Origin: Paracoccaceae bacterium
GTDB taxonomy: Bacteria; Pseudomonadota; Alphaproteobacteria; Rhodobacterales; Rhodobacteraceae
Length of the DNA: 64,000 nt
Assembly (NCBI GenBank): GCA_020446815.1
Contig: JAGRDY010000018.1
Coordinates: 186,001 to 250,000, forward strand
Reading direction: 5' to 3'
A model generated the notes under the pieces. The model was not told where the DNA came from. It did no database searches and saw only the letters and a list, made by a program, of their open reading frames with translations. Position 1 is the first letter of the stretch. Every line of letters begins with the position of its first letter. This document shows, in pieces, positions 293 to 17,988 of the stretch. The translations under genes were made by a program, and so were the position numbers.

Positions 293-1600
293 ATGAACCT
301 GAAAAGTATGATTACCGGTCTGAGCCGCAGAGGCTTTCTGGGTTCGGTGGCGTCGTTTGCGGGGGTCAGTACGCTTGGCGCATCGCTGCCTGGCAGGGCG
401 CTCGCCGCCGATGACAACGTGATCAAGATCGGCTTTCTGGCGCCTCTGACCGGGGCGGTTGCCGCCTGGGGCAAGCCTGGTCTCGATGGCTGTCAGATTT
501 GGGCCGAATGGGTCAACAAGGCCGGCGGGATCAACATCGACGGAACCGCCCATACGGTCGAGTTTGTCAGCTATGACAATGAATACGATCCGGCCAAGGC
601 GCGTACCGGTGCGACCAAGCTGATCCGCGAGGATGGCGTGAAGTTCATCATGATGCTCGGCGGCGACACCTGGCCGGGGGTCATGCCGGTGGCGGAGCAG
701 ACGGGGATGTTGTTTTCCACGCTGTTGCCGTCGGATCTCTCGCCCGACACGACCACCCTTATCGCGCCCGCCGAAGTGCACCCGGTCTACAATGTCACGG
801 GCGTCGAATGGCTGGCCGAAAACAAGCCGGAATTGAAAACCGCCGTGATGTGTGCGCAGGACGATGCGCTCGGGCTGCCATCGGTCGCGACCTATCTGGC
901 CGCCTTCGAAGCCGCCGGGATCGAGATGCTGGACGAACCGCTGTTGTTCGACCCGGCGACGACGGACTTTGCGCCTGTGGTCACCCGCCTGATGTCCGGC
1001 AACCCGGATATCATCTGCCTTGACACCTGCTATTCGGATTATGTGCACCCGATCTGCGAACAGCTGTTCCAGCAAGGGTACAAGGGTCAGATCATTTCCT
1101 GCACGGCGGACTTCTACGACCAGATGATCGAAAAGACCTCGAAGGAGTTCATGGAAGGATTCATCTTCCAGTTCCCGGATTTCGACGATCCGGCAATGGA
1201 AGCCGAGGGCATCAACTTCAAGCACGCCAACGCCTTCTATGCGGAATACGCCAAGCGTTTTCCGGGCCAGTGGGGCGCGGTGAGTTGGGAATATGCGGCT
1301 GTCATGGATCTGTGGAAGGCGGCCGCCGAAACGGCGGGTTCCACCGAACCCGACGCGGTGCTTACGGCCATGCTCGACGATGGCAAGGGCATGCACGCCT
1401 TTGGCGAGGCCGATTGGTGGGGCAAGGATCTCTTTGGTATCGACCATGCCCTGGTCGGCAACTGGCCCGTCGTGGTCATCGAAGATGGCAAGGCGCATGT
1501 GAAGGCCCTGAAGTCGATCCCCGCCTGGTACGACAAGCATGGCGAATTGCTCAAGAAGTACATGTCGGACTACGGCCAGATGTGGAATCAGCGGACCTGA
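293..1600 (+). CDS. Liv-type ABC transporter substrate-binding protein
   Basis: This 435-aa periplasmic binding protein of the branched-chain amino acid/amide family (type I fold) delivers a small ligand to the permease encoded just downstream. The N-terminus has a Tat-type signal: SRRGFLG at residues 11-17, a hydrophobic stretch, and a likely cleavage after ALA near residue 38. The mature part opens with the family signature IKIGFLAPLTG. The start ATG has a GGGAGGA ribosome site. It heads an operon that leads into trimethylamine dehydrogenase, so a methylated amine or related compound is the inferred ligand. A true amino acid or amide ligand cannot be excluded from sequence. Confidence 0.88.
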   Translation: MNLKSMITGLSRRGFLGSVASFAGVSTLGASLPGRALAADDNVIKIGFLAPLTGAVAAWGKPGLDGCQIWAEWVNKAGGINIDGTAHTVEFVSYDNEYDPAKARTGATKLIREDGVKFIMMLGGDTWPGVMPVAEQTGMLFSTLLPSDLSPDTTTLIAPAEVHPVYNVTGVEWLAENKPELKTAVMCAQDDALGLPSVATYLAAFEAAGIEMLDEPLLFDPATTDFAPVVTRLMSGNPDIICLDTCYSDYVHPICEQLFQQGYKGQIISCTADFYDQMIEKTSKEFMEGFIFQFPDFDDPAMEAEGINFKHANAFYAEYAKRFPGQWGAVSWEYAAVMDLWKAAAETAGSTEPDAVLTAMLDDGKGMHAFGEADWWGKDLFGIDHALVGNWPVVVIEDGKAHVKALKSIPAWYDKHGELLKKYMSDYGQMWNQRT

Positions 1601-1672
1601 CAGGCCTGCTTCCGAAGCGTCGCGGCGGCTGGTTCGCCGTGGCGTTCCCCCACAGTATAAATCGAGACATCC

Positions 1673-2542
1673 ATGTTTGACCTGCTTGCGCAAACGGTCC
1701 TTAACGCTTGCTATTCGGCCAGCTACATTTCTCTTGTCGCCGTCGGGCTGGTGCTGATCTTCGGCGTCATGGGCATCGTGAACTTTGCGCATGGCGAGCT
1801 GTTCATGGTCGGCGCCTATGTCGTGGTCGCCCTTTATTCGAACTACGACATCCCTTATGTGCTTGTCGCCGCGATCGGCCTTGTCTTTGTGGGCTGCATC
1901 GGCCTTCTGATGGAACGAACGATGTTCCGGCCGCTTCGCGACAACCCGCTTGGCGGGCTCGTGGCGTCGATCGGTTTCCTGATGATCCTTCAGGCGCTGG
2001 CGTCGATCACCTTCGGGGTGAGAATGGCCTTTGTGCCGCCGGTGACCCAGGACGTCATCGAGTTCACCGACAAGATCCGCCTGCCGTTGCAGCGTCTTTA
2101 TGTGATCCTGGCGGCGGTCGGGTTTCTGACGGCCCTGTGGCTTTTTCTGACCCGCACCCGCTTTGGCTGGGCATTGCGGGCAAGCGCGCAGGATCCGGAA
2201 GCGGCCGCGCTGCAAGGCATCTCGATCACCCAGACTGCCAAGATAGCCATGTTCATCGGCGCCGCGCTGGCGGGCGTGGCGGGTGTGCTGACCGCACCGC
2301 TGATCTCGGTCAATCCGCATATGGGGCATTCGGTGATCATCGCCGCCTTCATCGTGGTGATCGTCGGGGGGGTCGGGTCGCTGGAAGGCGCTGTGGTCGC
2401 TTCGATCGCCTACGCTTTCGTCCACACCTTCGTGACCACGTTTTTCGACGGTGTGATTGCCGACATAACCGGCCTGTTGCTGATGCTTCTCGTGTTGATC
2501 GTCAAGCCGACCGGCCTATTCGGGACTGCGGACCGTGCGTAA
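1673..2542 (+). CDS. ABC transporter permease, LivH type
   Basis: This 289-aa inner-membrane permease is mostly hydrophobic helices and carries the LivH signature GIVNFAHGELFMVGAYV near residues 37-53. It is one half of the membrane channel of the transporter. It follows the binding protein by 72 nt, and its last 8 nt overlap the GTG start of the next permease. The match to LivH is clear; the substrate is inferred only from operon context. Confidence 0.9.
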   Translation: MFDLLAQTVLNACYSASYISLVAVGLVLIFGVMGIVNFAHGELFMVGAYVVVALYSNYDIPYVLVAAIGLVFVGCIGLLMERTMFRPLRDNPLGGLVASIGFLMILQALASITFGVRMAFVPPVTQDVIEFTDKIRLPLQRLYVILAAVGFLTALWLFLTRTRFGWALRASAQDPEAAALQGISITQTAKIAMFIGAALAGVAGVLTAPLISVNPHMGHSVIIAAFIVVIVGGVGSLEGAVVASIAYAFVHTFVTTFFDGVIADITGLLLMLLVLIVKPTGLFGTADRA

Positions 2543-3521
2543 CATCTGGATGATTCTGATCGCCGTCGCACTTGTGGTGCTGCCGCACGGGCTGAGCTTT
2601 TCGCAGCAGGAAATCCTTGTCTATCTGGTGATCAACATTTTGCTGGTGGTTTCCTACCGGCTGATGACGCTGACGGGGGAATGGTCTCTTGGCCATGTCG
2701 TGATCATGGGGGTCGGGGCCTATACCTCTGCGCTCCTGACCAAAAGGTTGGGGTTTTACGTTCCTGTCTCGATGATCATGGGAGCGCTGATGGCGGCGTT
2801 CGTGGCCTTTCTTCTCAGCTTTCCGCTGTTTCGCATGAAGGGGTTCTATTTCCTGATCGGCAGTTTCGCCTCGGCCGAAATCATCCGGCTGCTCTGGAAA
2901 AGGTTTCGTGAGCCGTTCGGCGGGCCGAAGGGACTGAAGCGGATCGACGGGTTGCCCAACATCGACATTGGCCCGATCCATATCGATTTCTTTGAACCGA
3001 CGGCATATTACTATTTCGCGCTCATCGTCGTCTTGGTCTGTCTGTGGGTTCTCTGGCGGATCGAAAAGTCGCTGGTCGGGCTGACCTTCCACGCGGTGCA
3101 TTGGCAAGACAAGCTGGCGCAGGCTTCGGGTGTGGATGTGCGCCGCTACCGGACCCTGGCCTTTGTGCTGGCCTCCGGGTTTGCCGGGCTGTCGGGCGCG
3201 TTGCTGGCCCATTACATCGGCACGATCAATCCTAACAGTTTTGATGTCGAGGTGATGGTCTTCGTGCTGACCTGGGCGATTGTCGGGGGCACTTCGACTT
3301 TCTACGGGCCGATCCTCGGATGCATCGTGCTGACAATCCTGAACGAGATAGTCCTGCGCGAGCTGGGATTCGAGCAGATGCGGCCGCTGATCTATGGCGC
3401 GATCATGATCGTTTCGATCCTCTTCATGCCGGATGGTCTGGAAAGCCTGGTCAAGCGGGCACTGGCCAGGTGGAAGTCCGCGCCACCACCGCCGAACCAG
3501 CCGGAGGAGGCAAAGCCGTGA
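2535..3521 (+). CDS. ABC transporter permease, LivM type
   Basis: This 328-aa permease is the second membrane half of the transporter, with about eight to ten hydrophobic segments and the LivM motif EWSLGHVVIMGVGAY near residues 50-64. It starts with GTG inside the end of livH and ends with a Pro/Lys-rich tail. The stop overlaps the GTG start of the ATPase gene (GTGA), so translational coupling is likely. Confidence 0.9.
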   Translation: MRNIWMILIAVALVVLPHGLSFSQQEILVYLVINILLVVSYRLMTLTGEWSLGHVVIMGVGAYTSALLTKRLGFYVPVSMIMGALMAAFVAFLLSFPLFRMKGFYFLIGSFASAEIIRLLWKRFREPFGGPKGLKRIDGLPNIDIGPIHIDFFEPTAYYYFALIVVLVCLWVLWRIEKSLVGLTFHAVHWQDKLAQASGVDVRRYRTLAFVLASGFAGLSGALLAHYIGTINPNSFDVEVMVFVLTWAIVGGTSTFYGPILGCIVLTILNEIVLRELGFEQMRPLIYGAIMIVSILFMPDGLESLVKRALARWKSAPPPPNQPEEAKP

Positions 3522-4288
3522 ATGCTCCACTTCTTCAGATAAGGGATCTGACCATGCGGTTCGGTGGCCTGACCGCGGTCGACAAGCTGAACTTCAATGT
3601 GCAGAAGGGCACGATCCACGGGTTGATCGGGCCGAACGGTGCGGGCAAGACCACCACCTTCAACATGATTTCGGGTTTCTATCGCCCGACCGAGGGCGAA
3701 ATCGTCCTGCGTGACGAATCCATCGCCGGATTGCAGATGCACGAGGTTGCGCATCGGGGTGTGGTGCGCACGTTCCAGCATTCGACTCTTTTTGCCGAAA
3801 TGAGCGTTCTGGAAAACGTGCTCGTCGGTACGCACATGGAGTTCCGGCCGTCGATCTGGAGCGCGCTGTCGGGGCGTGATGCGCAACAGCGCCGCGGTGC
3901 CGAGGCGAAGGCACAAGAGGCGCTCGATTTCTTTGGTCTTCTGGGCTTTCAGCACAACCTGGCAGGCGATCTGCCCCATGGCCACCAGCGCGCGCTCGGC
4001 ATGGCCGTGGCGCTGGCTTGCCGACCTGACATCATGCTTCTGGATGAGCCCTTTACCGGCATGAACCCCGAAGAGACGAAGCACATGATGAAGCTGATGG
4101 GCCGCCTGCGCGATTCGGGAGTGACCGTGCTTCTGGTCGAGCACGACATGTTCGCGATCATGGGGTTGTGCGACACGATCACTTGCATGAGTTTCGGCAA
4201 ATTTCTGGCCGAAGGTGGACCAAAGGAAATCCGCAACCACCCGGACGTGATCCAAGCCTATCTGGGAGGTGCCCGCCATGTTGCTTGA
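3518..4288 (+). CDS. ABC transporter ATP-binding protein, LivG type
   Basis: This is a 256-aa cytoplasmic ATPase subunit. Walker A is GPNGAGKTT, Walker B is IMLLDEPFTGMNP, and the signature loop is LPHGHQRAL, typical of LivG rather than the usual LSGGQ. The open frame runs further upstream, but the start is placed at GTG 3518: a perfect GGAGGAGG site sits at 3503-3510 and the codon overlaps the livM stop. It pairs with the LivF-type ATPase that overlaps its 3' end. Confidence 0.9.
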   Translation: MNAPLLQIRDLTMRFGGLTAVDKLNFNVQKGTIHGLIGPNGAGKTTTFNMISGFYRPTEGEIVLRDESIAGLQMHEVAHRGVVRTFQHSTLFAEMSVLENVLVGTHMEFRPSIWSALSGRDAQQRRGAEAKAQEALDFFGLLGFQHNLAGDLPHGHQRALGMAVALACRPDIMLLDEPFTGMNPEETKHMMKLMGRLRDSGVTVLLVEHDMFAIMGLCDTITCMSFGKFLAEGGPKEIRNHPDVIQAYLGGARHVA

Positions 4289-4950
4289 AATGAAGGGGGC
4301 GGCGGTAAATTATGGTCGCGTCACCGCTATCCGGGACATTTCGATCAGTGTTTCGGATGGTTCCGTCGTGACCATCATCGGCGGCAACGGCGCGGGAAAG
4401 ACGACGACGCTGCGGGCGATGTCCGGGCTTGTCAGGCTTTCTGCCGGTGAAATCCATTTCAACGGTGAGCGGATCGACGACCTGCCCGCTGACAGGATCG
4501 TCGCCAAGGGCATGGCGCATGTTCCCGAAGGTCGGCGCATCTTTCCCGACCTTACCGTCGAGGAAAACCTGCGCACAGGTGCATTCCTGCGCCGCGACAA
4601 GGCGGCGGTGAATGCCGACCTCGACAAGGTATTCAGCAGGTTTCCGAGGTTGAAAGAGCGTCGCGTCCAGTCCGCGAGAACCATGTCGGGCGGCGAACAG
4701 CAGATGCTGGCTATCGGAAGGGCGTTGATGAGCGATCCGAAGATCCTGTTGATGGACGAGCCGTCGATGGGGCTGGCGCCGGTCATCGTGGAAGAGATTG
4801 CGCTGATCATCGAAGAACTCAGCACCCAGGGAATGACCGTGGTGCTGGTCGAGCAGAACGCCGAACTGGCACTTGAACTGGCCGATTACGCATACGTTCT
4901 CGAAACCGGAAACATGGCTCTTGAAGGGCCTGCGAAGGAGCTACACGACA

Positions 4951-7846
<2,896 letters not shown>

Positions 7847-7926: not shown

Positions 7927-10900
7927 ATGGCCCACGCAGGGACGGAGACTGCATTGGAAACCCGCGTATTGTTCTGGTCCCTGAGCCATGACGCGATAGT
8001 GGCGTTCTATGTGATCGGCTTCAGTGCGATCGCGGTTTTCCTGTGGGGCCTGTGGCGGCATATTGCCAAATACCGTCGCGGTGCGGCGAATGTGTCGGCC
8101 GTCGATCTGTGGGCGGGAATGCGGCGCATGGTTGCCGACGTGCTCAGCCACCGGACACTCGTCCGGCGCGACCGCTATGCCGGTTTTGCGCATATGGGCA
8201 TCTTTTTCGGCTTCGTGATCGCCGCGATCGGCACGTCGATCATCACCCTGGAATATGACATCGTTTATCCGCTTTTCGGCGTCCGGTTCTGGAAGGGCGA
8301 TTTCTACCTGCTTTTCAGCCTGATCCTCGATCTGGGGCATGTGGCGTTGATCGTCGGCATCCTGATGATGATGTGGCGCCGTGCCTATTTCCGTTTGCCC
8401 AAGCTTGACTATCTGCGCGCCTATCGCGGCGAAGGGGAGTTGCGCGAACCGGCCCGGAAATGGCGGCGCGAGGATTGGCTGTTCATGTCGGTGCTGCTGG
8501 TCATCGAACTGAGCGGATTCACCCAGGAAGCTGTGCGGCTGCTGATGGATCGGCCGGAATGGGCGATCTGGTCGCCGGTCGGGCTGGCGCTGGCGAAGGT
8601 TTTTGCCGGGCTCGGGATGTCCGACGCCACGGCGGCCGCCATTCGCGGGGCCAACTGGTGGATGCACGGGGTACTGGCGCTGGCCTTCACGGCGGCGATC
8701 CCGTGGTACAAGGCCAAGCATATGATCGCGGTTCTGGGGTCTCTCTCGATGCGGTCCGAAAAGCCCTTGGCCCGGCTCCCGCGGGAGCCGGAAGACAAGG
8801 CGTCTGCCGGGGTCGCCTGCATCTCTGAGTTTTCATGGAAGGACATGCTGAATTTCGATGCCTGTACTAAATGCGGGCGCTGTCACGAAGCGTGCCCCGC
8901 CCGTAGCACCGGCTATCCGTTGTCGCCGCGCGACCTGATCCTGGATTTACGGCTCTATAACGACAAGGTGCAGGGCCGGCCGGAAGAGGGCGTCAGCCTG
9001 ATCGGTGATGTGATCGATGCCGAGACCCTGTGGTCCTGCCGGTCCTGCGGCGCCTGCCAGGAAATATGCCCGGTAGGTATCGAGCACCCGACCATGATCG
9101 TGCAAATGCGTCGGCAACTGGTTGACCGCGGAGAGATGGACCCGCTCTTGCAGGGCGCGCTCGATGCCATTTCCAGCACGGGCAACAGCTTTGGCGAGAA
9201 CAGCCGCAAACGCTCTGCCTGGACTCGCGAACTGGAATTCGAGGTCAAGGACATTCGCGAGGAACGGGCCGAGTCGCTTTGGTTCGTCGGTGACTATGCT
9301 TCCTTCGATCCGCGCAATCAGAAGGTCAGCCGGGCCTTTGCCTCGCTCTTGAAGGCGGCGCGCGCCGATTTCGCGCTGCTGCATGAAGGCGAGCGCAATT
9401 CGGGCAACGATGTGCGGCGTGTGGGCGAGGAGGGTCTTTATGAATCGCTGGTCGAAAGCAACCTGGAGGCCATGGCCGGCGTCAAACCGTTCGAACGGAT
9501 CATCACGACCGATCCGCACAGCTACAACACGATCCGCAACGAATATCCGGAATTCGGCCCGACCGCGCCGGTGGAACATTATTCTTCGGTGCTGGCGGAT
9601 TTGTTGGATACGGGCAGGTTGAAGGTCACCAAACCGTTGAACAAGCGTGTGACCTTTCATGACCCGTGCCATCTGGGCCGTCTCAATGGCGGCTATGACG
9701 CCCCGCGCCAGGTGCTCGAGGCGATCGGCTGCGAAATCATCGAGATGCCCCGCAACCGCGACAATTCCTTCTGTTGCGGTGCCGGTGGCGGGCGAATCTG
9801 GATTCCCGACCCGCCGGGCCAGGAAAAACCCTCTGAAAACAGGATGCACGAGGCATCCAGTCTGGGCGGGATCGACGTTTTCGTGACCTGCTGTCCAAAG
9901 GATCTGACCATGTTTGAAGACGCGAGAAAAACCAGCGGCCATGAAAAGGAGTTCGTGGTGCAGGATATTGCCGAATTGGTGGCCGAAGCGGTCGAACTGG
10001 AAAAACTGACGCTGAAGGATCTGCCGCCGCTGGCAGAACGGCTGACCGACGCCATCGCCACGCGCATCGCCGAAGTGGTGGCCACACGCCTCGACGAGGT
10101 ATTGGCCGGCAAGATGGCGGCCCTGGCGACAGCGCCGGAAGCCGGCTCTTTCACCGCTACGCGCGCCGTGGCGCCCCCCGCCGAAGCCGCCGAAGCCGCC
10201 GCCGAGCAGCCCGCGGCCCCGGTCGCGCGGCCGCCCGAGCCAGACATCAGCGCACCACCCGCCGCCCCGCCGGCCGCCGATCCCCTGCCGGCGCTGACGC
10301 CAATGGACTGGGACAATCTCGCGCCGGTCACCCCGGCCGATCTCGGCGGCTATGTGGCGCCTGACAAGACCGGCCTGCGCATCATGGTGGCAGTCAAGCA
10401 CGCGGCCAAGCTCGGCGACGAGTATGAATTCACCGCCGACGGGCGCGATATTGGCGGCGAATTTCTGGAACACGATCTCAACGAATGGGACGATGCGGCA
10501 CTGGAACAGGCGCTGCTGCTGATCGAGGCGCTTGGCGGCGGCGAGGTTGTCGCGGTGGCTGTCGGCCCTGAAGAAAGCGAAAAATCCCTGCGCAAGGTTC
10601 TGGCCAAGGGCGCCGATCGCGCGATCCGTGTCTGGGATGACAGGCTGGCCAATGCCGACCCGGTGACAATAGCGCGCGCGCTTGCCGGTGTGGCCAGGGC
10701 TGAGGCACCCGATCTCATTCTGACCGGCACGCAAAGCTCCGATCAGGCGCATGGCTCGACCGGCACGGCGCTGGCGCGGATTCTCGGGCTTGCGCACGCA
10801 TCGGTCATCGCCTCTGTCGAGTGGGACGGAAAGGGCGATCTGACCGTCACGCGTGAACTCGAAGGTGGCACCCGGCAAGTCCTGAGCCTGCCCGCGCCTG

Positions 10901-11142
10901 CGCTGCTGGCGATCCAGACCGGCACCAATACGCCGCGCTACGCCACGATGCGGATGATCAAGCAGGCAAAGAAAAAGCCGCTCGAAGTGCTGGACGGGGC
11001 GGCGTTGATCGACGGGGGCGGCGGCTACCGCGTGCGACGGATGTACACACCGGTACAAGAGAAGGCGAAGATGCTGGAAGGTAGCGCCGAAGAGGTTGCA
11101 GAACAGATCGCGGCGCTTATCCGCGAACGGAAAGGAACGTAG
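7927..11142 (+). CDS. fused membrane Fe-S/heme oxidoreductase (DgcB/EMO-like) and ETF beta subunit
   Basis: A 1071-aa fusion. Residues 20-260 hold about five membrane helices of the NarI-like (DUF3483) type. Residues 313-381 are two [4Fe-4S] motifs, CTKCGRCHEAC and CRSCGACQEIC. Residues 450-660 are two CCG-type domains; only the second keeps cysteines (581, 616-617, 655-656). Residues 740-800 are an Ala/Pro linker, and 816-1071 an EtfB domain with the usual VAVKHAAKLGDEYEF and QSSDQAHGSTG motifs. The first part resembles DgcB and the ETF:quinone oxidoreductases of the DUF224/EMO group, so the protein should carry electrons from ETF to quinone. A TTG at 7954 with GGGACGGAG upstream is an alternative start. 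EtfA follows at once. Confidence 0.85.
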   Translation: MAHAGTETALETRVLFWSLSHDAIVAFYVIGFSAIAVFLWGLWRHIAKYRRGAANVSAVDLWAGMRRMVADVLSHRTLVRRDRYAGFAHMGIFFGFVIAAIGTSIITLEYDIVYPLFGVRFWKGDFYLLFSLILDLGHVALIVGILMMMWRRAYFRLPKLDYLRAYRGEGELREPARKWRREDWLFMSVLLVIELSGFTQEAVRLLMDRPEWAIWSPVGLALAKVFAGLGMSDATAAAIRGANWWMHGVLALAFTAAIPWYKAKHMIAVLGSLSMRSEKPLARLPREPEDKASAGVACISEFSWKDMLNFDACTKCGRCHEACPARSTGYPLSPRDLILDLRLYNDKVQGRPEEGVSLIGDVIDAETLWSCRSCGACQEICPVGIEHPTMIVQMRRQLVDRGEMDPLLQGALDAISSTGNSFGENSRKRSAWTRELEFEVKDIREERAESLWFVGDYASFDPRNQKVSRAFASLLKAARADFALLHEGERNSGNDVRRVGEEGLYESLVESNLEAMAGVKPFERIITTDPHSYNTIRNEYPEFGPTAPVEHYSSVLADLLDTGRLKVTKPLNKRVTFHDPCHLGRLNGGYDAPRQVLEAIGCEIIEMPRNRDNSFCCGAGGGRIWIPDPPGQEKPSENRMHEASSLGGIDVFVTCCPKDLTMFEDARKTSGHEKEFVVQDIAELVAEAVELEKLTLKDLPPLAERLTDAIATRIAEVVATRLDEVLAGKMAALATAPEAGSFTATRAVAPPAEAAEAAAEQPAAPVARPPEPDISAPPAAPPAADPLPALTPMDWDNLAPVTPADLGGYVAPDKTGLRIMVAVKHAAKLGDEYEFTADGRDIGGEFLEHDLNEWDDAALEQALLLIEALGGGEVVAVAVGPEESEKSLRKVLAKGADRAIRVWDDRLANADPVTIARALAGVARAEAPDLILTGTQSSDQAHGSTGTALARILGLAHASVIASVEWDGKGDLTVTRELEGGTRQVLSLPAPALLAIQTGTNTPRYATMRMIKQAKKKPLEVLDGAALIDGGGGYRVRRMYTPVQEKAKMLEGSAEEVAEQIAALIRERKGT

Positions 11143-11144
11143 TC

Positions 11145-12110
11145 ATGCCCGGTATTCTTGTCGTTGCCGAACAGATGGAGGGCAGCCTGCGCGATATTTC
11201 GGCCGAACTTATCGGCGCGGCACTGTCGATCAAGGACCAGATAGGCGGCCCGTTGCGGGTGCTGGTCATTGGCGCGACACCCGACAATCTGGCCAGGGGC
11301 GTCAATCTGCATGGTGTGGATGAGATACTGACGGTGACAACCCCCAGCGATCATTTCGATCCCCTGATATACGAACAAGCCGTCGTGACCGCCGGCGGCC
11401 AATGCAAGCCAACGGTCGTTCTGATCGGGCATACCGTCAGCGGCATGGCTTATGGCGCATCCGTAGCGGCCCGGCTGGGCTCCGGTTTTGCCAGCGACGT
11501 GTTCATTCTTGGCACGGCTGACGGTGAACTGATCGCGACCCGCGCGGCTTATGGCAACAAGGTCGAGATGGAGATGGGTTTTTCCGGCAAGGGTGTCGTT
11601 GTGCTGACCCTGCGGGGCGCCACCTTTGCTGCGCCCGATGGCGGTGGATCGGCGACCCTGACGGCTTTGGCTGTCGATATGAGCGGCATCGAAGGTGTCT
11701 CGACCCATGTCGAATACCAGGAGGCGCCGCCTTCGGATGTCGATATCACCAAATCCGGTTTCATCCTGTCGGTGGGGCGCGGTATCCAGGACAAGGACAA
11801 CCTGCCGCGTTTCGCGGCTCTGGCCGACAAGCTGGGTGCCACGCTTGGCTGTTCGCGCCCCATTGTCGACAGCGGCTGGCTGGCCAAGCCGCATCAGGTC
11901 GGGCAGTCCGGCAAGGTCGCCTCGAATTGCGAGCTTTATCTGGCGCTGGGCATTTCCGGTGCGGTGCAACATCTTTACGGCATGAAGCATGTCGATACGA
12001 TCATCGCGGTAAATACCGACCCTGATGCGCCGATCTTCAATGTCGCGACCTATGGTACTACGGTTGATCTGTTTGAGCTGACCGAAGCGCTGGAGCGGCA
12101 TTTCAATTGA
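11145..12110 (+). CDS. etfA: electron transfer flavoprotein alpha subunit
   Basis: This 321-aa FAD-binding ETF subunit is the partner of the EtfB domain in the preceding fusion. The C-terminal FAD motif is intact: SVGRGIQDKDNLPRF, GCSRPIVDSGW, QVGQSGK, ALGISGAVQH and the API loop. It starts 3 nt after the fusion gene with an AAAGGA site. The pair should take electrons from the dehydrogenase [4Fe-4S] cluster, as TMADH does with soluble ETF. No free EtfB is encoded in this operon. Confidence 0.93.
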   Translation: MPGILVVAEQMEGSLRDISAELIGAALSIKDQIGGPLRVLVIGATPDNLARGVNLHGVDEILTVTTPSDHFDPLIYEQAVVTAGGQCKPTVVLIGHTVSGMAYGASVAARLGSGFASDVFILGTADGELIATRAAYGNKVEMEMGFSGKGVVVLTLRGATFAAPDGGGSATLTALAVDMSGIEGVSTHVEYQEAPPSDVDITKSGFILSVGRGIQDKDNLPRFAALADKLGATLGCSRPIVDSGWLAKPHQVGQSGKVASNCELYLALGISGAVQHLYGMKHVDTIIAVNTDPDAPIFNVATYGTTVDLFELTEALERHFN

Positions 12111-12141: not shown

Positions 12142-13248
12142 ATGACAGCAGAAGGCACACGCAATTCCGTTCTCGAAAGCCGCCACCGGGCGCTTGGATC
12201 CGATCTCGGCGACTGGAACGGCATGGGCGTCGCCTGGCATTATGCCAGCGACCCGTGCGACGAACATGACGCGGTGCGAACTGCGGCGGGGTTGTTCGAC
12301 GTTTCGGGATTGAAGAAGATCCATGTTCGCGGCCCCGACGCGCTGGCGGTCGTCGACCACATCATCACCCGCAACATGGCGGCAATCCCGCCGGGGCGGT
12401 CGGCCTACGGGCCCAATCTGACCGAGGAAGGGACGATCTGTGACGATGCGATCATCTTCAATCTTGGCGATGGCGAATGGATGGTGGTGCACGGTGCCGG
12501 CGAATGCATGGAGCGTTTGCAGGAATCGGCAAAGGGCAAGAATGTCGAAATCGCCTTTGACGACGATCTGCACGACATTTCGCTTCAGGGGCCGAAATCG
12601 ACCGCCTTTCTAAACCAGTTCACGCCGCTCGATCTTGAGTCGCTGGGATATTTTCATCAGCAGCGCACCACGCTTTTCGGCCACCCCGTGATCATTTCGC
12701 GCACCGGTTATTCCGGCGAACGCGGTTATGAGATATTCGCGAAGGCCAGCCATGTCACCGATATCTGGGACCAGATCCTCGAAAAGGGCGCATCGGAAGG
12801 GATCATGCCCTGTTCCTTCACCTGCCTCGACAAGATCCGGGTAGAGGCCGGGCTGCTGTTTTATCCCTATGACATGACCAAGGAGCAGACACCCTGGGAA
12901 GTCGGCTTGGGCTGGGCCGTGTCGACTAAGGGCGGCGATTTTCGCGGGCGCGATGCGGTGCTGGCCGCGAAGGGCAAGGAAAAGATCACCGTGGTCGGGA
13001 TCGATGCCGATCATGGCGAGGCGCTGGCGGGTGGCGAAAAGCTGATGCGCGACGGAAAGGAAGTCGGCGTCGTGAATTCGCCGGTCTGGTCGCACCGGAT
13101 GAAGAAATCCATCGCGCTCGCGCATGTCAGGCCGGATGCGGCGGCGCCCGGCACGAAGGTTCGTGTCGAAGGTGACGGCGTGTCTTGCACGGCCACCGTC
13201 GCATCCGTGCCGTTCTACGACCCCCAAAAGACCAGGACCCACGGATAG
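12142..13248 (+). CDS. GcvT-like folate-dependent aminomethyltransferase family protein
   Basis: This 368-aa protein of the glycine cleavage T-protein/DmdA/dimethylglycine dehydrogenase C-terminal fold has a strong AAGGAGG site. Seen motifs include GLFDVSGLKKIHVRGPDA, RTGYSGERGYEIF, the folate-site region CLDKIRVEAGLLFYPYDM and the C-terminal barrel. It is not DmdA or housekeeping GcvT by its motifs. Behind trimethylamine dehydrogenase, the likely job is to move the one-carbon unit released by demethylation onto tetrahydrofolate. Whether it acts on formaldehyde or on a methylated intermediate is not shown. Confidence 0.82.
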   Translation: MTAEGTRNSVLESRHRALGSDLGDWNGMGVAWHYASDPCDEHDAVRTAAGLFDVSGLKKIHVRGPDALAVVDHIITRNMAAIPPGRSAYGPNLTEEGTICDDAIIFNLGDGEWMVVHGAGECMERLQESAKGKNVEIAFDDDLHDISLQGPKSTAFLNQFTPLDLESLGYFHQQRTTLFGHPVIISRTGYSGERGYEIFAKASHVTDIWDQILEKGASEGIMPCSFTCLDKIRVEAGLLFYPYDMTKEQTPWEVGLGWAVSTKGGDFRGRDAVLAAKGKEKITVVGIDADHGEALAGGEKLMRDGKEVGVVNSPVWSHRMKKSIALAHVRPDAAAPGTKVRVEGDGVSCTATVASVPFYDPQKTRTHG

Positions 13249-13347: not shown

Positions 13348-14724
13348 ATGACCACGATGAACGAGGCCCGCATCCGGCACAGGCGCAGAACCGTGCGCTG
13401 GGGCTATATCTGGGCGCTTTGGTGCGCGGTGTTCTGGGGGGCGTGGTACCTGCCCGGCACCGCCGTGTGGAGCGTACCGCCCTTTGCCGCCATGAGTTTC
13501 AGGACCAGCGATGAGTTTCTGGCTGCGGCGGCCGTGATCACCGCGCTGAACGCGGTCGGCGTCTTGATCGCGCTTTTCATCTGGCTCGCATCGCTGGAAA
13601 AACTCGGTGAGTTCTGGCGTACCTTGCGGCAGTTCCGCAAGATATCGATATGGTTCTTCCTGGCGGCGATTTTCGGCGGGCCCTGCGCGCTTTTCGGCTC
13701 ATATCTCGCGATCGGCTTCGTCGGCCCGGTTTTTGCCGCCGTGGCCGCGCTGCTTTACCCGATCATCGGCGCCAGCCTTGCGCGTTTGTGGTACAACGAA
13801 AAGATAACCCTGCGCGCGGCAATCGGGATCCTGGTGATCGTTGTCGGCGGCGTCTCGATCTTCGTGCCGGGCATCGCCGCCGAAACGGCAAGCGCCGGTG
13901 ATCTGATCTGGATCGGGTATCTTGGCGGCGCGATGGCGGCCTTTGGCTGGGGCGTCGAAGGGGCGGTGGCCGGGCGGGCGCTGGATATCACCGATCCGGA
14001 TGTCGGCATCACCATCCGATTTACCGCCGAGGTCTTCTATTGGGTGTTCCTGCTGCTCCCCGGTTTCGCGCTCTGCTTCGAAACGCCGGTCTATGAAGTC
14101 ATGCGCGCCACGGTCAACTTCTGGGCCCTTGTCTGGTTGTCGCTTGCCGGTATCAGCTTCGGTTTTTGTTATGTATGCTGGTACAAGTCCTTTCCCCTTA
14201 TCGGTGTCGGGCGAGGCCAGGCGATCGGGGCGCTTTACGCGGTCTTTGCCGTGATCTTCCTGGCGGTCTTCGCCTTCAGGTTTCCCGACTGGAACTTCCT
14301 TGCTGGGCTGGCGCTTGCCGTTGCAGGCAGTTTTCTGATGGTCACTGAACCTGCGGATATCGTGGAAGTGGTCCGCGCGTCTGACGACAGCAACCTTCCT
14401 GCTCCCGCCAGACACGACCCCGGTTCCGATAATTCGCATCTGCATATGAAAGGCTTCGTGCTGCTACTTCTGGCTAGTGCCCAAGAGCGCGGATTATGGG
14501 ATCATGAAATCATGCGGGAGGTCTTTCACAAATATCATCGCAAGAGCGACTATTGGAAGGGCGAGGTTCGCGCCACGCTGGCCGATCTCAACTCGGGCGC
14601 GCTGGTCGAAGAGCTCGAGGATGATCTGGATGATGGCCGGTATTTCGGCAAGGACAAGATACTGATGAAATTCCGCATCAGCCGTTTCGGAATGAAACGC
14701 TTGTCCGAAACCGGTCTGTTTTAA
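13348..14724 (+). CDS. DMT/EamA-type permease with C-terminal cytosolic domain
   Basis: This 458-aa protein has about ten membrane helices (residues 18-345) in the drug/metabolite transporter pattern, with the early motif WALWCAVFWGAWYLPG. Beyond residue 365 an extra soluble segment of about 90 residues (helix-rich, then a short acidic stretch and basic end) looks like a winged-helix or DprA-like module. DMT members are usually near 300 aa, so the tail is notable. Its operon position suggests import or export of methylated amines. Start ATG 13348 has GGGAG upstream. Confidence 0.8.
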   Translation: MTTMNEARIRHRRRTVRWGYIWALWCAVFWGAWYLPGTAVWSVPPFAAMSFRTSDEFLAAAAVITALNAVGVLIALFIWLASLEKLGEFWRTLRQFRKISIWFFLAAIFGGPCALFGSYLAIGFVGPVFAAVAALLYPIIGASLARLWYNEKITLRAAIGILVIVVGGVSIFVPGIAAETASAGDLIWIGYLGGAMAAFGWGVEGAVAGRALDITDPDVGITIRFTAEVFYWVFLLLPGFALCFETPVYEVMRATVNFWALVWLSLAGISFGFCYVCWYKSFPLIGVGRGQAIGALYAVFAVIFLAVFAFRFPDWNFLAGLALAVAGSFLMVTEPADIVEVVRASDDSNLPAPARHDPGSDNSHLHMKGFVLLLLASAQERGLWDHEIMREVFHKYHRKSDYWKGEVRATLADLNSGALVEELEDDLDDGRYFGKDKILMKFRISRFGMKRLSETGLF

Positions 14725-14930: not shown

Positions 14931-15602
14931 TCAACGCGAAGGCGAAACGTTCTGGCCGCCGCCTGTCGATTCGAGTTCGCCAATCAGCGCTTCGGTCGTC
15001 AGCTGGCGGCAATATCCCCTGATCGCCGATACCGAATTGTCATGCCGTTCCTGGCTGTAGGTCAGGCAGGCATCGGTGACCTGCGTGACCAGATAGCCAA
15101 GGTCGCAGGCATCGCGGATCGCGCTTTCCACGCATTGGTCGGTGATCAGCCCGCTGATGATCAGTTGCCGCACACCCAGGTTGCGCAGAACATAATCGAT
15201 ATGGGTCGAGACGAAGACCGAGGAAGACGATTTCGGCAGCACGATTTCATCCTCCAGCGGGGCGAGCGCGTCGATGACCTTGCCGTCCCACGACCCCTTG
15301 GCAACGTTGAAGCCGGTGATCTTGTAGTCGAGGCTGCGGTCGCGCCCGTCGAGCGTGAGGCTTTCGATGGTGGTGTAGATCACCTCCACCCCGGCGGCGC
15401 GGCACGCCGCCTGCAATCGCTGCATCCGGGGCACCACATGGTTGTCCAGCTGATCGAAATACCAGCCGTATTTCGCCGCAAGCTCGGCGTCGGGCAGGCG
15501 GGCGAATTCCGCGCCTTTCCGGTCGGCGCCAAAATTCTGGACATCGATGAACAGAAGGGCCGCCTCGTTGGGGACGATGGGAAGATTGCGTGTCAGCGCC
15601 AT
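14931..15602 (-). CDS. isochorismatase-family cysteine hydrolase
   Basis: This 223-aa alpha/beta hydrolase has the family triad: Asp20 (LLFIDVQN), Lys124 (VLPKSSSSVF) and Cys157 (GLITDQCVES). Members cleave amide or C-N bonds (nicotinamide, N-carbamoyl compounds, ureidoacrylate, biuret) or vinyl ethers. It starts 2 nt after the amidohydrolase gene and ends the leftward transport operon, so it probably hydrolyses the imported compound or an intermediate. Substrate not predictable. Confidence 0.85.
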   Translation of the reverse strand: MALTRNLPIVPNEAALLFIDVQNFGADRKGAEFARLPDAELAAKYGWYFDQLDNHVVPRMQRLQAACRAAGVEVIYTTIESLTLDGRDRSLDYKITGFNVAKGSWDGKVIDALAPLEDEIVLPKSSSSVFVSTHIDYVLRNLGVRQLIISGLITDQCVESAIRDACDLGYLVTQVTDACLTYSQERHDNSVSAIRGYCRQLTTEALIGELESTGGGQNVSPSR

Positions 15603-15603
15603 G

Positions 15604-16383
15604 TCAGCTGTTCTCCAGGAAACGCGCGATCGCGTTGCAAAGCAGTTCGGCCCAGGCCTGCTGGCCGGCGGCGTCGGAAATCCTGTCGTTGCGGATCTCG
15701 ATCAGGCTGTGGGGCAAGCCGCGCGCCTCGCCGTGCCGGGGCACGAACCAGTCCGAGGCGTCCTCGATCTGGTAGGGCTGGTTCATTCCGATCACGAGTT
15801 CGGGGTGCTGCGCCTGCACATGATCGCGAAGGGTTGCCGATGTGCGCGTGTCGCGGCGAAACAGAAACCCCAGATCCCAGGGCCGCGCCACGCCACCGAG
15901 GACCGGCGTGAAACTGTGAATCGCGAATGTCGCCCGCCGCGGCCGGATGTCGAGAAGGGCATTGGCCGTCTCGTGAAAAGGGCGGAATATCTCGTTGACG
16001 CGCGCCTGCCGGTCGGCGGCGCCAAGGCCCCGGTTGCCGGGAATCGCGATACCATCGCTGACCTCGGGAATCGCGTCGGGGCTGTCGGGGGGGCGGTTGC
16101 AGTCGATCACGAGGCGACTGAAACGCTGCAACGCGACCGGCGCGCCAAGCCGTTCGGCCATGTGCCGCGCGACGGCGCCCGCGCCGATGTCCCAGCTGAT
16201 ATGCGCATCGCGTTGATGCTGGGATATGCCCAGCGTGCCTAGCCGTTCCGGCACCGCCTGCCCGGCATGTTCGCAAATCAGAAGCACCGGGAAATCGCTG
16301 TCGGGGTTGAGCACTTCCACCGGGTGCGGATCCTGCGCGGTCAGCAGGCGTGCGCCGGTCTCGGTGAGACTGTCGGCTGTCAT
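15604..16383 (-). CDS. N-formylglutamate amidohydrolase family protein
   Basis: This 259-aa protein of the HutG/N-formylglutamate amidohydrolase fold has LLICEHAGQAVPERLG, DAHISWDIGAGAVARH and DCNRPP, which place the zinc-binding His/Asp residues. The start is ATG 16383, whose ATGA overlaps the stop of the LivH-type permease; a longer frame to 16458 has no support. No other histidine-degradation gene is nearby, so the substrate is probably another N-acyl or gamma-glutamyl compound of this cassette. Confidence 0.85.
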   Translation of the reverse strand: MTADSLTETGARLLTAQDPHPVEVLNPDSDFPVLLICEHAGQAVPERLGTLGISQHQRDAHISWDIGAGAVARHMAERLGAPVALQRFSRLVIDCNRPPDSPDAIPEVSDGIAIPGNRGLGAADRQARVNEIFRPFHETANALLDIRPRRATFAIHSFTPVLGGVARPWDLGFLFRRDTRTSATLRDHVQAQHPELVIGMNQPYQIEDASDWFVPRHGEARGLPHSLIEIRNDRISDAAGQQAWAELLCNAIARFLENS

Positions 16384-17273
16384 ACCTTCACCGCCTTGAG
16401 AACGCTCGACGGCACAAGACCGTTCGGCCGGAAGAGCAGCAGTACGACAACGATGCAAAGCCCGATCGGATCACGGAATTCCTGAAGCTCGGGCGGCAGG
16501 AAGGCCGCAAGATAGACTTCGATGAAGCCAAGCGTGAACCCGCCCGCCACCGCGCCACGCAGGCTGCCCAGCCCGCCGAGAATCGCGGCGATGAAGGCCT
16601 TGAGCACCGGCGTGAACCCCATCAGCGGATCGACCGAAGCGCGTTGGCTGACCCACAGCACGGCGGCGACACCGGCCAGAAGCCCCGACAGGGCAAAGGC
16701 GCCCGCGATCACCGTGTTGGCGCGGATGCCCATCAACCGGGCGACGGCGAAATCCTCGGCGGCGGCGCGCATTGCGATGCCGGTTTTCTGATGGTTCATG
16801 AACCGGTCGAGAAAGATCAGCATGACCACGGTCGCAACGATCGCCACGATCTTGTTCACACCAATCACCATCCCGCCGATCTTGAAACTGTCCGACAGGA
16901 AAGCGGGCAGCAGAACGGCCTGCGAACGCGCCGAAATGAAGTTCTGGAACAGCACTTGCAGGATCATCGCGACCGCGAAACTGGTGATCAGCATCGTCGC
17001 TCCCGATCCGTTGCGAACCGGCCGGAAGGCGATCCGCTCCATCAGGACCGCGGCCACCATCGAGGCGCAGATCGCCAGCGGCACCGACACGACGAAGGGC
17101 ACCCCCGCGATACCGCAATACATCAGCACATAGCCCGCGATGGTCATCAGTTCGCCATGGGCGAAGTTGATCAGCCCCATGATCGAAAATACCACGGCAA
17201 GCCCCAGCGCCAAGAGCGCATAAGTGCCGCCTAGCGCGAGCGCGTTGGTGGTCTGCTGCAAAAACAAGTCCAT
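16380..17273 (-). CDS. ABC transporter permease, LivH type (second system)
   Basis: This 297-aa membrane permease has the LivH signature GLINFAHGELMTIAGYVLMY near residues 34-53. The start is ATG 17273, one nt after the LivF-type ATPase stop; the upstream extension to 17423 reads as Pro/Arg-rich shadow sequence. It is the partner of the LivM domain in the fusion at 19148-20965. The 3' end overlaps the amidohydrolase gene by 4 nt. Confidence 0.9.
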   Translation of the reverse strand: MDLFLQQTTNALALGGTYALLALGLAVVFSIMGLINFAHGELMTIAGYVLMYCGIAGVPFVVSVPLAICASMVAAVLMERIAFRPVRNGSGATMLITSFAVAMILQVLFQNFISARSQAVLLPAFLSDSFKIGGMVIGVNKIVAIVATVVMLIFLDRFMNHQKTGIAMRAAAEDFAVARLMGIRANTVIAGAFALSGLLAGVAAVLWVSQRASVDPLMGFTPVLKAFIAAILGGLGSLRGAVAGGFTLGFIEVYLAAFLPPELQEFRDPIGLCIVVVLLLFRPNGLVPSSVLKAVKV

Positions 17274-17274
17274 T

Positions 17275-17988
17275 TCATTCAGCTCCCAGGTAGGCGGCCT
17301 GGAGCCTGTCGGCCTGCGACAGATCCCCGGCCGTGCCCGATGACACGATGCGGCCACCGGACATGACATATCCGCGATCGGCGATTTCAAGCGCCATGGC
17401 GACGTTCTGTTCGACGACCACAAGCGTGACCCCCTGATCGCGCAACACGCCGATCAGTTCGAAAATCTGCTCCACAATCTTCGGCGCCAGGCCCAGCGAC
17501 GGCTCGTCAAGCAAAAGCAGGCGCGGGTTGCTCATCAGTGAACGGCCGACGGCAAGCATTTGCTGCTGGCCGCCCGAAAGCGTGCCGGCGTATTGGCTGC
17601 GCCGCTCGAAGAGGATCGGGAAAAGCTCGTAGACACGGGCCCAGGCCGCGTCCATCTCTGCCCGGTCGCTGACCCCATAGGCGCCCATGCGCAGGTTTTC
17701 CTCGACTGTCAGCGTTCCGAATATCCGGCGTCCCTCGGGCGTCAGTGTCATGCCCATCGGCGCCAGCCGTTCGGGGGCGTGGTGGGTGATGTCGGTCCCG
17801 TCGAACACCACGCGCCCGGACGCGACGGGGACCAGCCCGGCCAGCGCGTTCAGCGTCGAGGATTTCCCGGCGCCATTGGCGCCGAGAAAGGCGACGATTT
17901 CGCCCGGGTGGATTTCGAAGCCGATCCCGCGCACTGCCTCGACAGCGCCGTAACGAACCTGAAGCGAGTCTACGGACAGCAGCGGCAT
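17275..17988 (-). CDS. ABC transporter ATP-binding protein, LivF type (second system)
   Basis: This 237-aa ATPase has Walker A GANGAGKSS, signature LSGGQQQML and Walker B LLLLDEPSLGLAP. ATG 17988 is chosen over ATG 18003 because AGGAGAAG lies just upstream of it. The ATG at 18003 overlaps the stop of the binding-protein gene, so a five-residue longer form is possible. Confidence 0.9.
   Translation of the reverse strand: MPLLSVDSLQVRYGAVEAVRGIGFEIHPGEIVAFLGANGAGKSSTLNALAGLVPVASGRVVFDGTDITHHAPERLAPMGMTLTPEGRRIFGTLTVEENLRMGAYGVSDRAEMDAAWARVYELFPILFERRSQYAGTLSGGQQQMLAVGRSLMSNPRLLLLDEPSLGLAPKIVEQIFELIGVLRDQGVTLVVVEQNVAMALEIADRGYVMSGGRIVSSGTAGDLSQADRLQAAYLGAE

What the first reader, a model, noticed from the sequence alone, without database searches (positions are those of the whole stretch)
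7927..12110. Membrane-tethered electron transfer flavoprotein: DgcB/EMO-type oxidoreductase fused to EtfB
One unbroken frame joins five membrane helices, two [4Fe-4S] motifs, CCG domains, an Ala/Pro linker and a full EtfB domain; EtfA follows at 3 nt and there is no free etfB. Known TMADH uses a soluble ETF that must find ETF:quinone oxidoreductase. Here the ETF would be held at its own quinone reductase by a flexible tether. I know DgcB-like and EMO proteins as separate subunits, not in this fusion, but cannot search.
Basis: partly seen in the sequence, partly recalled or inferred. Interest (0 to 1): 0.82.

Follow-up and report, generated by a model that had tools for sequence, protein, structure and literature searches.

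The report
Quinone reductase carrying its own ETF-beta
In this bacterium, the membrane enzyme thought to pass electrons from amine breakdown to the respiratory chain is fused by a floppy linker to one half of the small electron carrier that would feed it, and related bacteria share this fused version.

Summary
The fusion is real and conserved. One 1071-aa frame (7927-11142) joins a five-helix Fe-S/CCG membrane reductase of the DgcB/EtfD/EMO kind to a complete ETF-beta through an Ala/Pro-rich linker. EtfA follows 2 nt later; a TMADH-like dehydrogenase (61% identical to the Methylophilus enzyme, same pocket) lies upstream. Of 80 retrieved relatives (121 found), 32 are fused, 46 split, 2 cut off. 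Fused forms are one clade in trees of both modules; a sequencing error is excluded. The contrast with classical TMADH needs correction: Methylophilus methylotrophus, source of the TMADH-ETF crystal structure, has the same reductase unfused in its TMADH cluster, while ETF-QO lies near a second ETF. The fusion thus tethers an existing ETF/reductase pair. 'No free etfB' holds only for this cluster; the genome also has canonical EtfAB and ETF-QO. A HEAT/LRV-type gene lies between reductase and etfB in 32 of 46 split loci, 0 of 32 fused. Likely mechanism: the dehydrogenase reduces tethered ETF, which reduces quinone through its own reductase. Electron transfer and membrane location are untested. 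Ten open-access library searches showed me no description. New variant of a known kind.

The parts
293..4985 (+). Upstream ABC transporter of branched-chain amino-acid (Liv) type: binding protein 293-1600, permeases 1673-2542 and 2535-3521, ATPases within 3320-4288 and 4269-4985; possible substrate uptake for the same unit
   Evidence: ORFs; Pfam ABC_tran for both ATPases and BCA_ABC_TP_C for the first. The binding protein and permeases are assigned from order and sequence, not by a family search.
5660..7846 (+). TMADH-like Fe-S/flavin dehydrogenase (728 aa), likely electron donor
   Evidence: PDB 1djn TMADH, E 6.1e-302, residues 3-719; 434 of 715 aligned residues identical to the M. methylotrophus enzyme in L059; C30, Y60, S74, W105, Y169, H172, W264, D267, W355 as in TMADH (residue roles recalled).
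7927..11142 (+). Fusion protein: DgcB/EtfD-type ETF:quinone reductase + linker + ETF-beta, 1071 aa
7987..8697 (+). Membrane module, five long helices, candidate heme-b ligands H89 and H247 (residues 21-257)
   Evidence: Helices; H89 and H247 in 83 of 83 aligned reductases (35 fused, 48 split); fold match to EtfD 9ojn. The pairing with EtfD's His78/His241 is by order and conservation, not by a residue-level alignment.
8857..9081 (+). Two [4Fe-4S] motifs: C313, C316, C319, C323 and C371, C374, C377, C381
   Evidence: Pfam Fer4 families; column-for-column with EtfD D3/D4 ligands (ligands from PMC13083937); C319, C323, C371, C374, C377, C381 in 33 of 33 fused rows, C313 and C316 in 32 of 32 with letters.
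9274..9993 (+). CCG region (residues about 450-689); only the second half keeps cluster ligands H531, C581, C616, C617, C656
10012..10128 (+). First part of the linker, residues 696-734, modelled as a helix with low confidence
   Evidence: AlphaFold2 model, block pLDDT 39-61; a similar start is seen in most of 33 fused rows but not in L011, L021, L032; split reductases end 1-34 residues (median 13, n 46) after position 690.
10129..10326 (+). Ala/Pro-rich linker, residues 735-800, predicted disordered
   Evidence: pLDDT under 50 at 733-783, block means 59-69 at 781-800; linker (homologues of 700-815) 55-127 residues, median 90, poorly conserved in 33 fused rows.
10372..11139 (+). Complete ETF-beta module, residues 816-1071
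   Evidence: PF01012; covers PDB 1o94_C residues 1-263, E 2.5e-63; Foldseek TM 0.90 by target length to ETF-beta of the TMADH-ETF complex.
11145..12110 (+). ETF-alpha, presumed partner of the fused ETF-beta
   Evidence: PF01012 + PF00766; PDB 1o94_D E 2.3e-84.
12142..13248 (+). GcvT-like folate-binding aminomethyltransferase, possible acceptor of the released one-carbon unit
   Evidence: PF01571 + PF08669; GcvT-type gene after EtfA in Paracoccus aminovorans and in L132; within the DNA held in 8 of 32 fused loci.
13348..14724 (+). EamA/DMT-family permease with a C-terminal extension, possible member of the unit
   Evidence: PF00892; a DMT transporter holds the same place in P. aminovorans.

Best explanation
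The 1071-aa protein is a membrane ETF:quinone oxidoreductase of the DgcB/EtfD/EMO kind that carries its own ETF-beta on a flexible C-terminal tether. EtfA binds the tethered EtfB, giving a membrane-held ETF. The TMADH-like enzyme oxidises a methylated amine, most likely trimethylamine, through its cysteinyl-FMN and a [4Fe-4S] cluster (cofactors from TMADH, partly recalled). The ETF domain docks through its beta subunit, and the FAD domain (EtfA) picks up one electron. ETF then swings back on the tether to the CCG/D2 cluster, and electrons run D2 -> two [4Fe-4S] -> heme b -> quinone. The GcvT-like enzyme may capture the released one-carbon unit on folate. Shown here: gene structure, conservation, folds, ligand conservation, operon logic. 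Inferred: EtfA pairing, electron path, membrane location, substrate, and the benefit of tethering (high local ETF concentration, dedicated routing away from the cell's general EtfAB/ETF-QO).
For: Domain content and single frame. Fold match to the quinone-linked EtfD 9ojn and to ETF-beta of the TMADH-ETF complex 1o94. Cluster and candidate heme ligands conserved. EtfA next to the fusion in 30 of 32 fused loci, gaps -4 to +4 nt, the other 2 running off the contig; TMADH-like gene in 21 of 32, 20 of them within about 310 nt upstream. The unfused homologue lies in the TMADH cluster with the crystallised type of ETF in M. methylotrophus. In Methylophaga lonarensis the only ETF pair detected is on the same contig as this reductase, and no ETF-QO is found, so the reductase is the only quinone route of these two types found there (draft genome, one case). 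Own genome has a separate EtfAB and ETF-QO. PMC13083937 (abstract and sections 8, 9, 12 read) gives the electron wire of EtfD.
Against: No biochemical data. The sixth D2 ligand of EtfD (Cys712) is Asp659 here in 35 of 35 fused rows, and D1 ligands are gone, so the entry cluster may differ. 11 of 32 fused loci show no TMADH-like gene in the DNA held, although three of these (L015, L021, L037) have little or no upstream DNA, so the module is not tied to TMADH. In the window's genome and in 19 of 20 others searched an ETF-QO is also present and could in principle serve this ETF. Linker cleavage or internal initiation could free EtfB.
Confidence: 0.75

Rival explanations
1. The fusion is translated as one chain but cut in the disordered linker, or EtfB is also made from an internal start, so the working ETF is soluble and the fusion only sets stoichiometry.
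For: The linker is predicted disordered and is Ala/Pro-rich, so it would be easy to cleave. 23 of 33 fused rows have an in-frame ATG in the scanned stretch before EtfB; 7 of 33, the window and its near kin, share one 25 or 26 codons before the scan's end; 10 of 33 have an SD-like motif before some in-frame ATG/GTG/TTG.
Against: No start is shared in place by all or most rows, and no in-frame start in the window's linker has an SD-like motif by this crude test. A linker of 55-127 residues is kept in all 33 rows although its sequence drifts.
Confidence: 0.15
2. The tether has no kinetic role: a one-time gene fusion was tolerated and spread with the operon.
For: Fused forms are one clade, compatible with a single event, and split relatives serve similar dehydrogenases unfused.
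Against: No split row lies inside the fused clade of 35 rows; linker length is kept while its sequence drifts. Both are weak arguments.
Confidence: 0.2
3. The substrate is not trimethylamine but another methylated amine or betaine imported by the upstream ABC transporter.
For: A Liv-type transporter precedes the operon. 10 of 19 fused-class dehydrogenases with these positions covered have a different pocket (S/T169, D172, F355). Four TMADH-less fused loci (L026, L028, L030, L035) lie beside GBBH-like TauD genes.
Against: The window's enzyme keeps all compared TMADH pocket residues, as do 7 other fused-class enzymes, and lacks the Q60/T74/F105 pattern of the second copy in Hyphomicrobium zavarzinii.
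Confidence: 0.25
4. Sequencing or assembly error joined two genes.
For: None found.
Against: 32 of 80 loci from separate genome records, isolates included, carry the fusion in one frame, as do further genomes found by another search.
Confidence: 0.01

Closest known systems
EtfD of mycobacteria (PDB 9ojn; PMC13083937)
   Same: Five-helix heme-b membrane domain, two [4Fe-4S], CCG domains, ETF as electron donor, and a long disordered C-terminal tail (Ala/Pro-rich in the alignment) that an AlphaFold3 model in that paper places against ETF.
   Different: Its tail carries no ETF-beta; it has the linear [3Fe-4S] D1 cluster, whose ligands are absent here; it serves beta-oxidation.
DgcB of Pseudomonas (dimethylglycine catabolism) and FadF of Bacillus
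   Same: PMC13083937 says both lack the D1 cysteines, as here, and suggests direct ETF-to-D2 transfer.
   Different: Tail short or absent according to the same paper; no fused ETF mentioned there. No DgcB or FadF sequence was compared here.
TMADH-ETF system of Methylophilus methylotrophus (PDB 1o94)
   Same: Dehydrogenase 61% identical (locus L059) with the same pocket; ETF-beta and ETF-alpha are the closest solved structures; same gene content apart from X.
   Different: Reductase and EtfB are separate genes with a HEAT/LRV-type gene between them; exit-region residues V344/Y442 instead of E344/R442.
DUF224 EtfAB:quinone oxidoreductase of Syntrophomonas wolfei (PMC3582634, passages read)
   Same: Membrane Fe-S reductase clustered with etfAB and assigned as EtfAB:quinone oxidoreductase.
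   Different: Separate genes; butyryl-CoA oxidation. Its sequence was not compared here.
Classical ETF-QO (PF05187)
   Same: Same net task, ETF to quinone.
   Different: Not homologous to EtfD according to PMC13083937; present elsewhere in this genome.

Membership tests
DgcB/EtfD/EMO membrane ETF:quinone oxidoreductases | Five-helix membrane domain with two conserved histidines for heme b | tested here: met
   Five long helices; H89 and H247 in 83 of 83 rows; fold match to 9ojn with TM 0.77 by target length, rmsd 8.1. Heme binding itself not tested.
DgcB/EtfD/EMO membrane ETF:quinone oxidoreductases | Two [4Fe-4S] ferredoxin-type motifs | tested here: met
DgcB/EtfD/EMO membrane ETF:quinone oxidoreductases | Noncubane D2 cluster ligands (His + five Cys in EtfD) | tested here: inconclusive
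   H531, C581, C616, C617, C656 in 83 of 83 rows; the sixth ligand position is D659 in 35 of 35 fused rows, with C655 close by in 34 of 35.
DgcB/EtfD/EMO membrane ETF:quinone oxidoreductases | Linear [3Fe-4S] D1 cluster (EtfD subgroup only) | tested here: not met
   All four ligand columns are non-Cys in 35 fused and 48 split rows, so it is not an EtfD-subgroup member; this matches what PMC13083937 says of DgcB and FadF.
DgcB/EtfD/EMO membrane ETF:quinone oxidoreductases | Quinone reduction with ETF as donor | not testable with these tools
   Needs an assay.
ETF beta subunit, TMADH-ETF type | Full-length ETF-beta fold including the dehydrogenase recognition loop | tested here: met
   residue 1008, in the stretch I take to be the recognition loop (recalled), is Met in 35 of 36 fused rows and Leu in 48 of 48 split rows.
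ETF beta subunit, TMADH-ETF type | AMP rather than FAD in the beta subunit | not tested
   Cofactor content inferred only from relatedness.
Trimethylamine dehydrogenase | Cys30-FMN, four-Cys cluster and TMA pocket (Y60, S74, W105, Y169, H172, W264, D267, W355; recalled) | tested here: met
   All present in the window's enzyme.
Trimethylamine dehydrogenase | Val344/Tyr442 at the ETF side (Tyr442-Arg-alpha237 pair seen in a reference title; Val344 recalled) | tested here: not met
   E344 and R442, as in the other fused-class enzymes and in histamine dehydrogenase 6de6. So: TMADH-like, with a different ETF-side surface.
Dimethylamine dehydrogenase | Q60/T74/F105 (recalled) | tested here: not met
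   Window has Y60/S74/W105.

The most novel reading that the evidence does not exclude
A respiratory quinone reductase has taken in its own shuttle: ETF works as a tethered swinging arm rather than a diffusing carrier. In most split relatives a HEAT/LRV-repeat protein encoded between the reductase and etfB does the same job non-covalently, as a scaffold that the fusion made dispensable. The cell thus keeps two electrically separate ETF circuits.
Probability: 0.3. Interest if true: 0.75.

Novelty: new variant of a known kind. Interest (0 to 1): 0.57.

Why it matters
TMADH-ETF is a textbook model of interprotein electron transfer, but to my knowledge (recalled, not searched out) the partner that takes electrons from its ETF to quinone is rarely discussed. 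The gene fusion, and the split cluster in the model organism itself, point to a DgcB/EtfD-type reductase and not the generic ETF-QO. The fused protein also gives a natural test of whether ETF must diffuse, and a way to hold ETF on an EtfD-type reductase; PMC13083937 did not see ETF bound to EtfD in its structure.

Tried and rejected
Sequencing error: rejected. Internal start for EtfB: no start shared by most rows, not excluded. Long open frames at G384 (1085 aa) and G163 (969 aa) looked like further fusions; G384's frame shows no EtfB match, and G163's matching frame is 691 aa with no EtfB match, so both were dropped. A role for the exit-residue change in tethering: E344/R442 also occur in histamine dehydrogenase 6de6, so they may be ancestral; kept only as a correlation. 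X (HEAT/LRV) as a strict requirement of split systems: rejected, since 14 of 46 split loci lack it.

Rows dropped: one search kept 80 of 121 relatives, so 41 were never seen. L033 and L034 are cut off and counted as neither fused nor split, but were placed with the fused class in the dehydrogenase comparison. There, L085 and L086 (the window's own locus and G052, both fused, both E/R) were left out as partial, and the second L042 copy (T344/F442) was left out of the 45 split rows. L032 and L037 (reductase) and L032 (EtfB) were left out of the trees as truncated; L033, L034, L120, L122 and L128 were not put in. The archaeal L127 was left out of the split counts. Trees are 'quick' searches with SH-aLRT support only. 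Of 19 class genomes with a reductase match, nine were read for EtfB with a clear answer (the window, G052, G232, G122, G117, G325, G282; G384, G163); the rest were not classed. Structure alignment A2 held 33 fused rows and 30 of 46 split loci, each split locus as two rows.

Calls that led nowhere: paper search 31 (swamped by 'emotion'), 12 and 32 (no papers). Papers: PMC13083937 abstract and sections 8, 9, 12; PMC8593149, PMC2702500, PMC3582634, PMC5861303, PMC8097209, PMC12630350, PMC4256349 passages only; all others search listings only.
Full report
WHAT IS THERE. The frame 7927-11142 encodes 1071 residues without a stop. Pfam places a 4Fe-4S dicluster domain at 311-385, CCG at 575-658 and the ETF domain at 849-1025 in this one protein. 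The best PDB relatives by sequence are mycobacterial EtfD (9ojn, E 1.1e-71) for the front and ETF-beta of the Methylophilus TMADH-ETF complex (1o94_C, E 2.5e-63, its residues 1-263) for the back. An AlphaFold2 model (mean pLDDT 80.1; alignment of 93 rows) has five long helices in the first 260 residues, the Fe-S and CCG region, a low-confidence helix at 696-734 (block pLDDT 39-61), a stretch under 50 at 733-783, then the ETF-beta fold. Foldseek matches it to 9ojn (E 1.6e-37, TM 0.77 by target length, 27% identity, rmsd 8.1) and to 1o94 ETF-beta (TM 0.90 by target length). EtfA begins 2 nt after the fusion stop.

REDOX CENTRES. Against EtfD (ligands from PMC13083937, sections read; alignment), the eight cubane-cluster cysteines match column for column. 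For D2, H531, C581, C616, C617 and C656 match; the sixth position is D659 (35 of 35 fused rows, 46 of 48 split rows). All four D1 ligand columns lack Cys in all these rows. The same paper says FadF and DgcB lack the D1 cysteines and suggests ETF-to-D2 transfer. H89 and H247, the candidate heme ligands, are present in 83 of 83 rows; I did not align them residue by residue with EtfD.

CONSERVATION. A scan of species genomes found 121 relatives and kept 80. In stop-to-stop frames, 32 of 80 are fused, 46 are split and 2 are cut off by contig ends. The linker is 55-127 residues (median 90) in 33 fused rows, window included; mean identity to the window is 38% at 700-810 against 63% for the EtfB part and 81% for residues 570-695. 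Split reductases stop 1-34 residues (median 13, n 46) after position 690, so the long linker is an addition of the fused class. In 'quick' trees the fused rows form one side of a single branch: 35 rows in the reductase tree, 36 in the EtfB tree, SH-aLRT 99 in both. One origin is therefore compatible with the data. In an even draw of the class, 19 of 385 genomes had a reductase-module match at E 1e-30 or better; six of these (G000, G052, G232, G122, G117, G325) are fused by locus reading (G117 with a cut-off EtfB part), G282 is split, G403 could not be decided (570-aa frame). None of 21 same-genus and 15 same-family genomes showed a match over the whole reductase module; what they showed were ETF-beta matches and, in some, weak partial matches to the Fe-S/CCG part. 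This suggests, without proving, that the operon was acquired horizontally. Among plasmid records, 12 have one place covering at least 80% of the query; one (Shinella, H1/L128) is fused by locus reading.

THE SPLIT RELATIVES CHANGE THE STORY. In Methylophilus methylotrophus DSM 46235 (L059) the order is TMADH - reductase - gene X - etfB - etfA, and that EtfB is the crystallised TMADH partner or nearly so (PDB 1o94_C, E 5.6e-165, only scattered differences). Paracoccus aminovorans has the same order, X included, followed by GcvT and a DMT transporter, as the window has apart from X and the fusion. In 19 of 20 genomes that I chose from the loci a canonical ETF-QO is present; in M. methylotrophus it lies about 2.5 kb from a second ETF pair, on another contig than the TMADH cluster. 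In Methylophaga lonarensis only one ETF pair and no ETF-QO were found, and the pair lies on the same contig as the reductase; this is a draft genome and a single case. So the dedicated ETF/reductase pair is not peculiar to the fusion, and the fusion makes it covalent.

GENE X. X of L059 carries LRV and HEAT repeats in Pfam; the others are called X by similarity to it and to its L042 counterpart. It is present in 32 of 46 split loci, in all 32 between reductase and etfB, in L038 and L061 in two frames, and in 0 of 32 fused loci within the DNA held. It was not found in the window's genome, with three genomes matching in the same call as controls. In a search of 18 genomes it was found in 1 of 12 fused-class genomes, 3 of 3 X-bearing split genomes and 0 of 3 split genomes without X. 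The exception, Tabrizicola soli, carries a second, split-class cluster, and X sits inside that one. X thus follows the split class even within one cell. As 14 split loci lack it, it is not essential to being split.

THE DEHYDROGENASE. The window's enzyme has every compared TMADH pocket residue (roles recalled). Among 19 fused-class enzymes with these positions covered, 8 share this pocket, 10 have S/T169-D172-F355 and 1 has A60/V74, so the fused module probably serves more than one substrate. At two positions tied to ETF transfer (Tyr442 by a reference title seen; Val344 recalled), fused-class enzymes have E344 (20 of 20) and R442 (22 of 22); split rows have V344 (44 of 46; T in two) and Y442 (45 of 46; F in the second Hyphomicrobium copy). 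These are 2 of 21 class-fixed columns among 715, counted without that second copy (whose printed numbers run one higher). Both Tabrizicola split-class enzymes have T344 and Y442. On the ETF side, residue 1008 is Met in 35 of 36 fused rows and Leu in 48 of 48 split rows, one of 3 fixed EtfB differences. In EtfA, the Arg of the CSRPI motif, which I take to be Arg-alpha237, is present in 29 of 29 fused and 44 of 44 split rows with letters. Against a link to tethering: histamine dehydrogenase 6de6 also has E/R, and the classes are single clades, so these are correlations.

NEIGHBOURS. EtfA is adjacent in 30 of 32 fused loci (gaps -4 to +4 nt), the other two ending at the contig edge. A TMADH-like gene is present in 21 of 32, 20 within about 310 nt upstream and L022 5.7 kb away; a GcvT-type gene in 8 of 32. 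Of the TMADH-less fused loci, L026, L028, L030 and L035 lie beside GBBH-like TauD genes and L037 beside a DAO-GcvT dehydrogenase; the few neighbours checked in L007, L020 and L021 showed no obvious dehydrogenase.

HOW IT LIKELY WORKS. TMADH-like enzyme to ETF (beta docks, the FAD domain in alpha samples; PMC8097209 passages), then ETF to the D2 cluster of the reductase on the same chain, then two cubane clusters, heme b, quinone. A disordered stretch of 50-66 residues would hold ETF at roughly millimolar local concentration (my polymer estimate, not a tool result). Mycobacterial EtfD has a disordered tail which an AlphaFold3 model places against ETF (PMC13083937); here the tail ends in ETF-beta itself.

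NOVELTY. Ten searches of the open-access library gave no description of a DgcB/EtfD-EtfB fusion in what I read, but most subscription papers are not held and most listed papers were not opened. I file it as a new variant of a known kind.

Noticed in passing
L059:8128-9537 and the same slot in 31 other split loci: HEAT/LRV-type gene between the reductase and etfB in 32 of 46 split loci, with no function known to me; a candidate scaffold for the untethered ETF.
   Followed up: partly
G000:C13:6667-7838 and C13:99492-99794: The window's genome has a second, canonical EtfB/EtfA pair and a canonical ETF-QO, so it may run two ETF circuits.
   Followed up: partly
L013, L014, L018, L024, L025, L027, L029, L031, L036, L080: Fused-class dehydrogenases with S/T169, D172, F355 instead of the TMA pocket: a substrate specificity in the TMADH family that I could not assign.
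   Followed up: no
L133 (G435:C1:14000-32000) and L031: Tabrizicola soli has both a split-class cluster (with gene X and two dehydrogenases bearing Y442) and a fused-class one (R442) in one genome.
   Followed up: partly
L061 genome (G428), Methylophaga lonarensis: Only one ETF pair and no ETF-QO detected; a natural case for identifying the quinone route of the TMADH ETF.
   Followed up: partly
L026, L028, L030, L035: Fused module without a TMADH-like gene in the DNA held, beside gamma-butyrobetaine-hydroxylase-like TauD genes; the electron donor there is unknown.
   Followed up: no
window 14931-17423, minus strand: Isochorismatase-like, N-formylglutamate amidohydrolase-like and branched-chain ABC permease genes on the opposite strand: possibly a second catabolic unit next to this one.
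   Followed up: no
G000:C33, C13, C10, C7: Four further dehydrogenases at 44-46% identity to the window's TMADH-like enzyme in the same genome.
   Followed up: no
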